A DNA stretch of 64,000 bases from Ignavibacteria bacterium (GTDB lineage: Bacteria; Bacteroidota; Ignavibacteria; Tepidaquicellales; Tepidaquicellaceae), in NCBI GenBank assembly GCA_028714695.1, contig JAQTLX010000006.1, forward strand, positions 124,001 through 188,000. Reading direction: 5' to 3'. Positions 59,233-63,468 of this stretch are shown one piece after another. The notes under the pieces are model-generated. The model did not search any database and was not told the origin of the DNA. It saw only the letters and a list, made by a program, of their open reading frames with translations. Numbering within the stretch: the stretch's first letter is position 1; every line of letters starts with the position of its first letter. The position numbers and the translations under genes are program-made.

Positions 59233-60780
59233 TTATTCCGAGGGGATTTCGGGATTAACGAATACCACTTTTTCCTTTTCCATAACAACCGCGCCTTCTT
59301 TAAATCCTTTTCTTTTCTTGACATATTTTCTTTCACAGTACGCCACGGGAACATTTCGTCCGTTCCTTGCCTTGCTGTAATATGCAGCAATGGAAGCGGC
59401 TTTGAGTATCAATGATTTATCAGGAACAAGATTTTTATCTTCGAATCTGAGGACCGTATGTGAACCGCTGGCTCCTCTAACATGGAACCATAGGTCATAC
59501 TGATTGCAGTATTTCATAGTAAGCAGGTCGTTGCTTTTGCTGTCTTTTCCCACCCAGACTACAAATTTATCATGCAGTCTGAATTCGCGAAAAGGAAGTT
59601 TTTCATTTTCTGTTTCTTCTTTCTTGAGCATTTTTACCAAATTCTTTGTGTCATTTTCAGAAATAATTCTATCTTTTTGTTTTTGCAAATTTACCAATTC
59701 GGATTCATACTTTCCAATCTTATCTTTAATCAGAGAAACCGACTTCTTTAATCCTTTATATTTTTCATAATACAAATTTGCATTCTCCGCAGGCGACAAG
59801 GAATCGTTGAGTTTTATCGTTTTTTTTTCTCCGCTTACAGAATCGGTATATTCGAATGATTTACTGTTTCGCTCAATCAGATGCAGATTCCGCATTATTA
59901 TGTCAGCAGATATTTTATGAATCGACGAATCTTCGGCTTTGACAAGATTGCCTTTCAGATTACCGATTTTCTTTTCAAGTTCTTTAATCTTTTTCTCATT
60001 GTCGGAAAGCAGTTTTGATTTGCTGTCCTCGTATCTGTCTCTGTGTTTAATTTTCGAATACGATACCGATATCAATGTATTGATATCATCGAATTCTTCG
60101 ATAAGTTCATAATCGCGTCCTGAAAGTTTTACAGGCGACGGAATAAAAGTTTTCTCTTTATAAAGATAATATTTTGACGAGTTGTTTATTTCTTTAATTA
60201 TATTTTCAAACTCGCGTATATGATTTTCTTCCGGGGCTTTTCCTTGCGCATCGGCTCTGGCGGATGCTTCTTTTGAATAATATTTACCGAGATAGCCGAA
60301 TTGTTTTATAAGAGGTTTTTCGCTGCCTGCATTTTCACCGGATACGGGATTAAAGATATTTATGTCTTTCCCCGTGTATTTATCTTTTTCCGAGAATGAA
60401 TTAACGATTAAACCGTTCTTTAAGAGGAAAACGTTGCTTCTATTCGGAATGAAAGATATTAAGATTGTGTAATCATGTTCGAGAGTAATATTGACAATTC
60501 TGTCGCGGTCGTTGATTTTGAAACCGCTTATTTTTAAGCCGTAGATATTTTCAAAAATGCCGAAAACATTTTTCTTAGGTCTTGAAAAGGAGTTAAGAAG
60601 AAAGAAGGTTTCAAGATTTTTTTCGAGGCTAATCTTAAGAAATTCCTGCACACCGTTTTTTGCAAGTTCAAGTATAAGAATATCTCTTTCGGGAGTATAG
60701 AAATCATGGATAATACAATCCCTGGAATGAGCGTTTAAAAAATCCGCTTCGGCTTTGAGTATGAAATAATTATTAATCAA
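59233..60780 (-). CDS. rqcH: NFACT family protein (RqcH-like ribosome quality control)
   Basis: 515 aa, TTG start at 60780. Domain order: N-terminal NFACT-N (about 1-230) with the conserved Asp-Arg pair (D93-R94 within NDRDRIV), two-part coiled coil (about 255-385) and NFACT-R at the C-terminus (about 405-515) with DLWFHVRGASGSHTVLR and AAYYSKAR. RqcH binds stalled 50S subunits and adds alanine tails to nascent chains. The Asp-Arg motif needed for tailing is kept, so it should be active. Alternative name: fibronectin-binding-protein A homologue. Confidence 0.9.
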   Translation of the reverse strand: MINNYFILKAEADFLNAHSRDCIIHDFYTPERDILILELAKNGVQEFLKISLEKNLETFFLLNSFSRPKKNVFGIFENIYGLKISGFKINDRDRIVNITLEHDYTILISFIPNRSNVFLLKNGLIVNSFSEKDKYTGKDINIFNPVSGENAGSEKPLIKQFGYLGKYYSKEASARADAQGKAPEENHIREFENIIKEINNSSKYYLYKEKTFIPSPVKLSGRDYELIEEFDDINTLISVSYSKIKHRDRYEDSKSKLLSDNEKKIKELEKKIGNLKGNLVKAEDSSIHKISADIIMRNLHLIERNSKSFEYTDSVSGEKKTIKLNDSLSPAENANLYYEKYKGLKKSVSLIKDKIGKYESELVNLQKQKDRIISENDTKNLVKMLKKEETENEKLPFREFRLHDKFVVWVGKDSKSNDLLTMKYCNQYDLWFHVRGASGSHTVLRFEDKNLVPDKSLILKAASIAAYYSKARNGRNVPVAYCERKYVKKRKGFKEGAVVMEKEKVVFVNPEIPSE

Positions 60781-60803: not shown

Positions 60804-61667
60804 TTAGCCATGTGTAAGGGCTTCGGCACCGCTGACTATTTCCAGCAATTCATTTGTGATTGCTTCCTGTCTTGCTCTATTATAATTGAGAGAGAGGAAG
60901 TTAATCAAATCGCTGGCGTTATTTGATGCTGAATCCATGGCGGTCATTCTGGCTCCCTGCTCCGATGCATTGGATTCGAGCAGCGCTTTCCAGAACTGTA
61001 CGTTTAAATTCTTCGGAATTAATTCCGACAGGATTTGCTTCGACGACGGTTCATAAATGAAATCTTTATTCGATAATTCCTTATCCTCAACGCCGTCGTG
61101 GCTGAACGGAAGGAAAGTTTCCTTCGTTATATTCTGTTTGATGATTGATTTAAATTCATTGTAAATAATTTCGATATTGTCGACTTCACCCGTTAGATAA
61201 AGATTCGTGAGATATTTCACAATATCGTTTGACGTCTGAATGTTCAGATTACCGAATACGCCCGGAAAATTCTTTATTACATTATATTTCCTCTTATTGA
61301 AGAAATCATATCCTTTTTTGCCGATAGTAATCATCGGAGAATCTTTGCCGATTTCATTCATATAATTCGCAGCGAATTTAATTATATTCGAATTAAACGC
61401 ACCGCAGAGTCCTCTGTCCGAGGTAATGAGAACGACAAGTTTCTTTTTAATATCTCGTTCTTTTGTAAGTTCATGATCACTAATATCCACAAGTGTCAGC
61501 ATCTGCGACATCAGGTGGTTGAGTTTAAACGCATAAGGTCTGGTAGATAAGATTTTGTCCTGTGCTTTTCTCATTCTCACAGCGGACATCATCTTCATCG
61601 CCTTAGTGATTTTCTGAATATTCTTTACCGCATTAATACGGATACGTATTTCTTTTAAAGACGCCAA
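60804..61667 (-). CDS. atpG: F1 ATP synthase subunit gamma
   Basis: 287 aa, TTG start at 61667. Central rotor stalk of the F1 part. N-terminal helix SLKEIRIRINAVKNIQKITKAMKMMSA (split motif about 3-29) and the C-terminal signature GARMTAMDSASNNASDLI (about 236-254) are diagnostic. The fold between them carries LVVLITSDRGLCGAFN. It follows the 88-aa ORF by 6 bp on the same strand in the order atpH-atpA-ORF-atpG. Confidence 0.96.
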   Translation of the reverse strand: MASLKEIRIRINAVKNIQKITKAMKMMSAVRMRKAQDKILSTRPYAFKLNHLMSQMLTLVDISDHELTKERDIKKKLVVLITSDRGLCGAFNSNIIKFAANYMNEIGKDSPMITIGKKGYDFFNKRKYNVIKNFPGVFGNLNIQTSNDIVKYLTNLYLTGEVDNIEIIYNEFKSIIKQNITKETFLPFSHDGVEDKELSNKDFIYEPSSKQILSELIPKNLNVQFWKALLESNASEQGARMTAMDSASNNASDLINFLSLNYNRARQEAITNELLEIVSGAEALTHG

Positions 61668-61673
61668 TTAATA

Positions 61674-61940
61674 CTATAATCCTTTTTCTTTTAATTTTTT
61701 AGAGACCAAATCTTCCAAAACGCCAAAGTCAACCGATGCAGAGCGCGGCTGAGCCTGGTGGATTGCTTCCTTCACGGTAGCAATTTCTTTATTAAGGTAC
61801 AAATTCAGGCAGAAACTAAGCCTGTTTCTGTCGCTATCAAGAGGGATAACGTTTTTCAGTTCGTCTATACCGTTATAAAGTTTTTTAATCGGGGCATTAT
61901 CATCGAGATAATTGACACCCGCAGGCTGTTTTGTTGTCAT
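61674..61940 (-). CDS. Small unknown protein inserted between atpA and atpG
   Basis: 88 aa, no signal peptide or helix of membrane type. Sequence features: an acidic/basic middle (LNKEIATVKEAIHQ) and a Lys-rich C-terminal helix (LEDLVSKKLKEKGL). I do not recognise it. It lies 4 bp after atpA and 6 bp before atpG, so it is part of the atp message. No ribosome-binding site is visible upstream, as with many genes here. It may bind the F1 rotor or regulate it, but this is speculation from position. Confidence 0.8.
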   Translation of the reverse strand: MTTKQPAGVNYLDDNAPIKKLYNGIDELKNVIPLDSDRNRLSFCLNLYLNKEIATVKEAIHQAQPRSASVDFGVLEDLVSKKLKEKGL

Positions 61941-61944
61941 AAAA

Positions 61945-63468
61945 TTATTTTTTTATAGAATCGTTAAATCTCTTTGCGAATTCATCAAGTATTCCGCTCA
62001 ATTTTTCCATCACCTCTTTGCTTAAATCTTTTTTATCTTTTATTTCATTCATTATATCGGAATGAAGATTTTCCATTTCAGACAAAAACTCGGATTCAAA
62101 TCTGCTTATGAAATCGACAGGGATTTCATCGAGATATCCGTTTGTAGCCGCATAAATAATCACCACCTGTTTTTCAACATCCATCGGTGAAAATTGTTTT
62201 TGTTTCAGTATTTCGACAAGTCTTTCACCTCTTCTCAACTGCTGCTGCGTTGCTTTATCGAGGTCGGAACCGAATCTCGCGAACGATTCGAGTTCTCTGT
62301 ACTGCGCAAGGTCGAGTCTCAGAGTTCCAGCAATTTTTTTCATTGCTTTTATCTGAGCGCTGCCGCCTACTCTCGATACGGAAATACCGACGTTAATAGC
62401 CGGTCTGATACCATTATTGAATAAATTAGGTTCGAGATATATCTGACCGTCGGTAATTGAAATAACATTTGTCGGAATATAAGCGGAGATATCGCCTGCT
62501 TTCGTTTCGATTACGGGCAATGCAGTTAAACTTCCGCCGCCGAGATCGTCCGATAATTTGGATGCTCTTTCGAGAAGTCTTGAATGCAGATAGAATACGT
62601 CACCGGGATATGCTTCTCTTCCCGGAGGTCTTCTAAGCAGCAATGAAAGTTCTCTGTATGCGGCTGCCTGTTTTGTAAGGTCATCGTATATTACAAGCGC
62701 ATGTTTTCCTCTGTCTCTGAAAAATTCTCCGATTGTCGCGCCTGAGTAGGGAGAAATGTAAAGCATAGGAGCGGGGTCAGAAGCCGTTGCCGCAACAACG
62801 GTAGTGTATTCCATTGCGCCTGCTTCTTCAAGACTTTTTACAACCTGCGCTACAGTTGAACCTTTTTGTCCGATAGCGACATAGATGCAGTAAACATCTT
62901 TTCCGCGCTGGTTAATAATAGTATCGATAGCAACTGCAGTTTTACCTGTCTGCCTGTCGCCGATAATCAATTCACGCTGACCTCTGCCGATAGGAATCAT
63001 TGCATCGATGGCTTTGAGACCTGTCTGCAATGGTTCTTTAACAGGCTGTCTCTGGATAACGCCAAGCGCTTTTCTTTCAATAGGCTGAAATAAATCCGAT
63101 TTAATTTCACCTTTGCCGTCAAGCGGCTGGCCGAGCGGGTTTACAACTCTACCGAGCATACAGTCACCAACGGGAATGGAAATAATTTTTCCAGTTCTCT
63201 TTACGGTATCGCCTTCTTTTACGAGATGGGATTCACCGAAAAGAACGCAGCCTACATTGTCTTCTTCAAGGTTAAGCGCCACTCCGAATACTCCGTGAGG
63301 AAATTCGACAAGTTCACTTGCCTGGCAGTGTGAAAGACCATATACTCTCGCAACGTTATCGCCTACAGACAACACCGTTCCTACATCGTATATATCCACT
63401 TCCTTTTCATAACCTGAAAGCTGCTTCAGGATTACCGCTGATACTTCTCCGGCTTTTACATCTATCAT
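61945..63468 (-). CDS. atpA: F1 ATP synthase subunit alpha
   Basis: 507 aa. P-loop GDRQTGKT (170-177), the upstream segment [13 protein letters not shown] and the family signature [14 protein letters not shown] near residue 365 mark subunit alpha rather than beta, with the Arg-rich SRVGG arginine finger retained. It forms the non-catalytic sites of F1. A good ribosome-binding site AGGAG lies about 10 bases before ATG 63468. It is 24 bp downstream of atpH. Confidence 0.97.

What the first reader, a model, noticed from the sequence alone, without database searches (positions are those of the whole stretch)
61674..61940. Unknown 88-aa gene inserted between atpA and atpG
Standard F1 operons run atpH-atpA-atpG without extra genes. 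Here an 88-aa ORF fits between with gaps of 4 and 6 bp, so it must be translated with the F1 subunits. Its charged helical C-terminus recalls small F1 regulators (epsilon-like or zeta/IF1 inhibitors) only in general style. It may be an unrecognised regulator or assembly factor of the ATP synthase.
Basis: partly seen in the sequence, partly recalled or inferred. Interest (0 to 1): 0.5.

Follow-up and report, generated by a model that had tools for sequence, protein, structure and literature searches.

The report
Small orphan gene inside ATP-synthase operon
An 88-residue protein gene sitting between two ATP-synthase genes is real and kept by natural selection, but the relatives examined elsewhere in the bacterial class sit away from those genes, so it looks like an older, undescribed small protein that entered the ATP-synthase operon once, in one lineage.

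Summary
The ORF is real: 61674-61940 (-), 4 bp after atpA and 6 bp before atpG, dN/dS about 0.11 between congeners. It lies between atpA and atpG in 12 of 27 scorable genomes of the family and is absent from that gap in 15 of 27 and in 7 of 7 sister-family genomes read. On an AtpA+AtpG tree the 12 carriers are one clade (support 100/99), so one entry into the operon. A profile finds the same protein, nearly always single-copy, in 229 of 382 class genomes. In 43 of 43 non-family loci examined it is not beside atpA or atpG. It belongs to a helical protein family without a Pfam, NCBIfam or solved relative in the searches made. Epsilon lies elsewhere in the carriers. A dedicated F1-regulator role is possible but not favoured: gamma occurs in 145 of the 153 genomes without the small gene. 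Best reading: a cytosolic class protein whose gene joined the atp operon once and is probably co-expressed with F1. Its molecular partner is unknown.

The parts
61674..61940 (-). 88-aa small gene (the finding), member of a class-wide undescribed helical protein family
61945..63468 (-). atpA, F1 alpha subunit (507 aa), 4 bp upstream of the small gene
   Evidence: PF00006, PF00306, PF02874
60804..61667 (-). atpG, F1 gamma subunit (287 aa), TTG start, 6 bp downstream of the small gene
   Evidence: PF00231
63493..63999 (-). atpH, delta/OSCP subunit, cut by the window end; the contig beyond the window gives a 180-aa ORF
   Evidence: PF00213
59233..60780 (-). NFACT-family gene directly after atpG
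   Evidence: (PF05833, PF05670)

Best explanation
The gene is one branch of an undescribed family of small soluble helical proteins (84-98 aa in the 49 members compared) of the Ignavibacteria-containing class. Elsewhere in the class it is nearly always single-copy and lies away from the F1 genes, in neighbourhoods that differ between families. Once, in the ancestor of one clade of this family, it came to lie between atpA and atpG, and every scorable member of that clade (12) keeps it there. SHOWN: reality, purifying selection, class-wide distribution, single entry into the operon, absence from the related ATP-synthase operons read, no known domain found. INFERRED: it is transcribed on the atp mRNA and translated by re-initiation across the 4-bp and 6-bp gaps, so its level follows F1 and growth. 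INFERRED: it works as a cytosolic adaptor that binds a partner other than F1 through its conserved N-terminal tail (MTTKPPxxV) and the start of helix 2 (N-D-R-N-R-L-G/S-F/Y), the parts kept in both operon and non-operon copies. Whether it arrived by moving within the genome or by transfer from a relative is open: within this order one gain is simpler than about three losses plus a move.
For: 12 carriers monophyletic, 100/99. The 49-row protein tree puts operon copies in one clade (100/99) with a long stem (0.6), beside the f10/f22/f26/f12 group (few columns, midpoint root). 229 of 382 class genomes have a hit at E<=1e-5, one per genome except two in G309. 43 of 43 non-family loci are away from atpA/atpG; among the capped place lists I found seven genomes with both genes on one contig, over 1 Mb apart by coordinates in six (G139, G144, G182, G345, G173, G084) and 33 kb apart in G189. 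Gamma is in 225 of 229 genomes with the gene and 145 of 153 without. Y22 and R40 are identical in 49 of 49 rows; D37 is D in 37 of 37 non-operon copies and D or E in 12 of 12 operon copies. No transmembrane-like stretch: maximum 19-residue hydropathy 0.47, and at most 1.09 over the 49.
Against: Strict retention at the alpha-gamma junction in all 12 scorable carriers would also be expected of an F1 partner. The long stem (0.6) and residues typical of operon copies only (Q62, P65, S67, E76, K86) suggest a changed role after capture. No empty ancestral site could be shown: beside fbp in this family, waaA was not found in any of 28 loci, and a heptosyltransferase-like match only in G003 and G004 (about 1.5 kb flanks). 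Only 43 non-family copies were read for context, of 217 non-family genomes with a hit. The partner is unknown.
Confidence: 0.55

Rival explanations
1. A true F1 regulator or assembly factor across the class, usually encoded in trans, whose gene joined the operon in this clade. It would bind the alpha/gamma region through a flexible N-terminal tail and a four-helix core.
For: Position exactly between alpha and gamma and kept in 12 of 12 carriers; model with a low-confidence tail (residues 1-16) plus four helices, the same general plan as the zeta subunit (disordered N-terminus plus four-helix globule, passages of PMC10469736). Known small F1 regulators can be encoded apart from the operon (recalled; atpT has its own promoter, passages of PMC9241938).
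Against: 153 of 382 class genomes lack it while 145 of those 153 have gamma. Four genomes have it without detectable gamma (G078 95% complete, G272 90%, G135 87%, G087 85%), though incomplete assembly can explain these. No Pfam match to any F1 regulator. The 43 non-family loci read show no alpha or gamma gene nearby.
Confidence: 0.27
2. After capture it became a new, lineage-specific F1 partner, different from the ancestral role.
For: Long stem branch (0.6) before the operon clade, and residues common in operon copies only: Q62 (10 of 12), P65 (12), S67 (10), E76 (11), K86 (11).
Against: The most conserved family residues (Y22, D/E37, R40, L41, largely N36 and R38, and the N-terminal tail) are retained (the window protein itself has S36). 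The carriers' stem in the AtpA+AtpG tree is ordinary (0.069; other inner branches reach 0.24), so these two subunits show no burst of change.
Confidence: 0.13
3. The ORF acts mainly as a translational spacer between atpA and atpG, and the peptide itself hardly matters.
For: Tight 4 and 6 bp gaps in the window; atpG starts at TTG or GTG.
Against: dN/dS about 0.11, conserved residues, and class-wide homologues. The codon aligned to the atpG start is TTG/GTG in all 27 family genomes read, carriers or not, so the weak start is not tied to the gene. In other carriers the whole alpha-gamma gap is up to 344 bp, so tight spacing is not general.
Confidence: 0.03

Closest known systems
Zeta subunit of alphaproteobacterial F1Fo (Paracoccus)
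   Same: Small (zeta 104 residues, passage of PMC5795051); disordered N-terminus plus four-helix globule (passages of PMC10469736), the same general plan as the window protein's model.
   Different: No Pfam match for the window protein. The class relatives here are not tied to F1 genes. No F1 interaction is known.
AtpTheta (atpT), cyanobacterial ATP synthase regulator
   Same: Small regulator of ATP synthase in one bacterial group (start of the abstract of PMC9241938 in the listing; passages).
   Different: No sequence comparison was made. The gene here is inside the operon in one clade only, and no action on ATP synthase is known.
F1 epsilon subunit
   Same: Small F1-encoded protein with a helical C-terminus (general style only, recalled).
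   Different: Carriers have a separate epsilon gene; the model here has four helices and no strands.
AtpI/AtpZ/AtpQ/AtpR accessory genes of atp operons (recalled)
   Same: Extra genes within atp operons.
   Different: Those are membrane proteins (recalled); this one has no hydrophobic segment.

Membership tests
F1 epsilon subunit | Sequence match to ATP-synt_DE_N (PF02823) | tested here: not met
   Pfam scan at E<=10 lists only YjcQ at 0.06; an epsilon gene is found elsewhere in the genome, G000 C2
F1 zeta subunit | Sequence match to the zeta Pfam family (accession recalled as PF07345) | tested here: not met
   Not among hits at E<=10 for the window protein nor at E<=0.5 for the 29 members of A2
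F1 zeta subunit | Flexible N-terminus plus four-helix globular domain | tested here: inconclusive
   AF2 models of middling confidence: window protein tail of low pLDDT plus helices 17-30, 35-49, 56-63, 72-85 (pLDDT 74.5, pTM 0.56); homologue L029 has helices 17-26, 35-49, 56-62, 72-87 and a short one at 7-10 in the tail (79.2, 0.67)
F1 zeta subunit | N-terminus inhibits ATP hydrolysis by inserting into F1 | not testable with these tools
   needs biochemistry
Mitochondrial-type IF1 | Sequence match to the IF1 Pfam family | tested here: not met
   not among the hits
AtpI/AtpZ-type membrane accessory proteins | Transmembrane segments | tested here: not met
   maximum 19-residue hydropathy 0.47 for the window protein, at most 1.09 over 49 members
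Class-wide small protein family described here | Full-length profile match with NDRNRL(G/S)(F/Y) core and conserved N-terminal tail | tested here: met
Obligate F1 subunit | Present wherever the F1 operon is present in close relatives | tested here: not met
   absent from the alpha-gamma gap in 15 of 27 family genomes and 7 of 7 sister-family genomes; no profile match below E 0.02 anywhere in the non-carrier genomes of the order

The most novel reading that the evidence does not exclude
The family is an undescribed F1 (alpha/gamma) regulator or assembly factor of the Ignavibacteria-containing class, normally encoded in trans, and this clade reveals its target because the gene has slipped into the atp operon at the alpha-gamma junction: a further kind of F1 regulator beside epsilon, zeta/IF1 and AtpTheta.
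Probability: 0.25. Interest if true: 0.7.

Novelty: new variant of a known kind. Interest (0 to 1): 0.42.

Why it matters
The F1 operon is among the more stable gene orders in bacteria (recalled). A single, strictly retained entry of an unrelated class-wide gene at the alpha-gamma junction gives a handle on a conserved protein family that the curated libraries searched do not cover, and points to ATP synthase as the first partner to test. If it is an F1 factor, it would be a new kind of regulator; if not, it shows how a separate gene can be captured by an operon of a core machine.

Tried and rejected
Epsilon replacement: rejected, epsilon is elsewhere (four non-carriers, G005, G013, G016 and G017, had no epsilon hit, not followed). 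Chance ORF or spacer: rejected. Pfam, NCBIfam and PDB sequences (best E 0.05, to protein A46, taken as chance) gave no identification; the best Pfam hit over 29 members was COG5_N at 0.0019 for one member, taken as chance. Foldseek gave no match at E<=0.001 for either model; VIA's best was Z 6.5, rmsd 3.3 over 70 residues, to a human HDHD4 chain (5.5 for the second model), below the level the tool calls meaningful; no zeta or epsilon appeared in the lists, which excludes nothing. No viral relatives found (13 pattern matches, none confirmed). Gene context of the non-operon copies gave no common function: heptosyltransferase, WaaA, ABC exporters and SerS (names recalled from sequence) and FBPase (Pfam) around copies in f10/f22/f26; in f17/f23 a downstream gene of 194-199 aa, MarC by Pfam in the one tested (L132), which also has a VTT (DedA-like) gene just upstream; dihydrofolate-reductase- and thymidylate-synthase-like genes (recalled names) in f4. 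Looking for an empty ancestral site beside fbp in the family: none recognisable; waaA in 0 of 28 loci, a weak heptosyltransferase-like match in G003 and G004. Three weak hits outside the class at E 0.002-0.008 were not followed and are taken as chance. Papers: 'between atpA and atpG' occurred in none of the 15 listed of 179 papers that hold at least one of two terms; 'atpG' + 'Ignavibacteri' gave one paper, not opened; others (8 papers; 2 papers) were seen as listings only, except passages of PMC3534657, which give no operon detail. So I found nothing in print on it in these searches.

Full report
Observation. The window carries an 88-codon ORF at 61674-61940 on the minus strand, ATG start, 4 bp downstream of atpA and 6 bp upstream of the atpG TTG start. 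Pfam confirms the neighbours as F1 alpha, F1 gamma and delta/OSCP, with an NFACT gene after atpG. The contig beyond the window completes the cluster as a 153-aa ORF without a Pfam hit, atpB, atpE, atpF, atpH, atpA, small gene, atpG, NFACT (the names of the F0 genes are read from sequence). Between congeners the ORF is under purifying selection: dN/dS 0.116 and 0.108 in two pairs, the third saturated at synonymous sites.

Close relatives. A single-sequence search of 39 genomes gave strong hits in 10, the window's own included (7 others had weak hits only), each of the 10 between atpA and atpG. Searching all 29 genomes held of the family with atpG found gamma in 28. The alpha-gamma gap could be read in 27: 12 hold the gene, 15 hold 12-145 bp without it. 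Two were dropped: G004 has no atpG hit, and G019 has only part of atpG at a contig end. In the sister family all 7 genomes checked have gaps of 3-83 bp. An alignment profile finds no match below E 0.02 in the 32 other genomes of the order, 17 of the family and 15 of the sister family. On an AtpA+AtpG tree with the sister family as outgroup, the 12 carriers form one clade with support 100/99. So the gene entered this position once and no scorable member of that clade lacks it.

The wider family. The profile of the first 10 operon copies found weaker but mostly full-length relatives in many other families of the class (199 of 391 genomes at E<=0.01). A 29-row alignment (A2) joins 12 operon copies, 16 of those relatives and L029. 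It finds the protein in 229 of 382 class genomes at E<=1e-5, one copy each except two in G309. In a phylum-wide draw of 395 genomes, 57 class members (the window's genome among them) had E 1e-38 to 1e-11 and only three outside the class had weak hits (0.002-0.008). Named records include Ignavibacteriae/Ignavibacteria MAGs (operon type; one titled only Bacteroidetes bacterium) and a Melioribacteraceae MAG (non-operon type). In 43 of 43 non-family loci read, the gene is not near atpA or atpG: 18 plus L029, four more genomes (which also widened 16 of the 18), 20 more. In seven genomes seen in the capped place lists with both genes on one contig, they are over 1 Mb apart in six and 33 kb apart in one. 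In the 49-row protein tree, which left out the near-duplicates L040 and L041 and the four extra loci, operon copies form one clade (100/99) on a long stem (0.6), beside the f10/f22/f26/f12 group (few columns, midpoint root).

Sequence and fold. Y22 and R40 are identical in all 49 rows (M1 too, but rows were cut at a start codon). D37 is D or E throughout, and N36, R38, N39, L41 and an N-terminal tail M-T-T-x-P-P-x-x-V are mostly kept in both kinds, while Q62, P65, S67, E76 and K86 are typical of operon copies. There is no membrane-like segment. AlphaFold models of the window protein (pLDDT 74.5, pTM 0.56) and of the Melioribacteraceae homologue (79.2, 0.67) agree on four main helices after an N-terminal tail of lower confidence. 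No curated family, solved sequence or confident fold match was found.

Is it an F1 factor? For: the exact junction, strict retention, and a general plan like the zeta subunit. Against: it is missing from close relatives with the same operon; 145 of 153 class genomes without it have gamma, and 225 of 229 with it have gamma, so there is no clear association (I assume the two draws of 382 are the same genomes, as the handles agree); non-operon copies have mixed neighbourhoods; epsilon is present separately in carriers (G023 only partial, below cut-off); and AtpA/AtpG show no unusual stem on the carriers' branch. I therefore favour a captured protein with another partner, co-expressed with F1, at 0.55, with an F1 regulator (ancestral 0.27 or newly evolved 0.13) as serious rivals. 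Co-transcription and translational coupling are inferred from spacing only; over the 12 carriers the whole alpha-gamma gap, small gene included, is 275-344 bp, so spacing is looser in some.

Direction and route. That the operon position is derived follows from its restriction, among the loci read, to one clade. Whether the gene moved within the genome or came from a relative is open: within the order, one gain explains the pattern, while vertical descent needs about three losses plus a move (inference from the tree). An empty former site was sought beside fbp and not found.

Noticed in passing
window 61665-61667 and loci L054-L080, L140-L146: The codon aligned to the window's atpG start is TTG or GTG in all 27 family genomes read, carriers and non-carriers alike, but ATG in 7 of 7 sister-family genomes. 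An in-frame stop lies within 27 bases upstream in 24 of the 27; G005, G009 and G020 show none and could start earlier.
   Followed up: partly
window 59233-60780: An NFACT-family (RqcH-like, name recalled) gene follows atpG on the same strand. A tblastn match to it lies in the atpG loci of 10 of 12 carriers (not G018 nor truncated G009) and of G007, G014, G017, G019 and G021, not of the other 11 family genomes; 5 of 7 sister-family loci have a short partial match.
   Followed up: partly
G000:C2:85728-85964: Epsilon (ATP-synt_DE_N) lies on another contig than the main atp cluster, so the F1 genes appear split in this genome.
   Followed up: no
L132, L133, L135, L136 (families f17, f23): The non-operon homologue is closely followed by a gene of 194-199 aa, MarC family by Pfam in L132 (the only one tested), with gaps of 3-6 bp or an overlap of 4 bp.
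   Followed up: partly
L075-L077 (G020, G005, G239): Non-carriers of one genus have an unusually long atpA-atpG gap of 115-145 bp without the gene.
   Followed up: no
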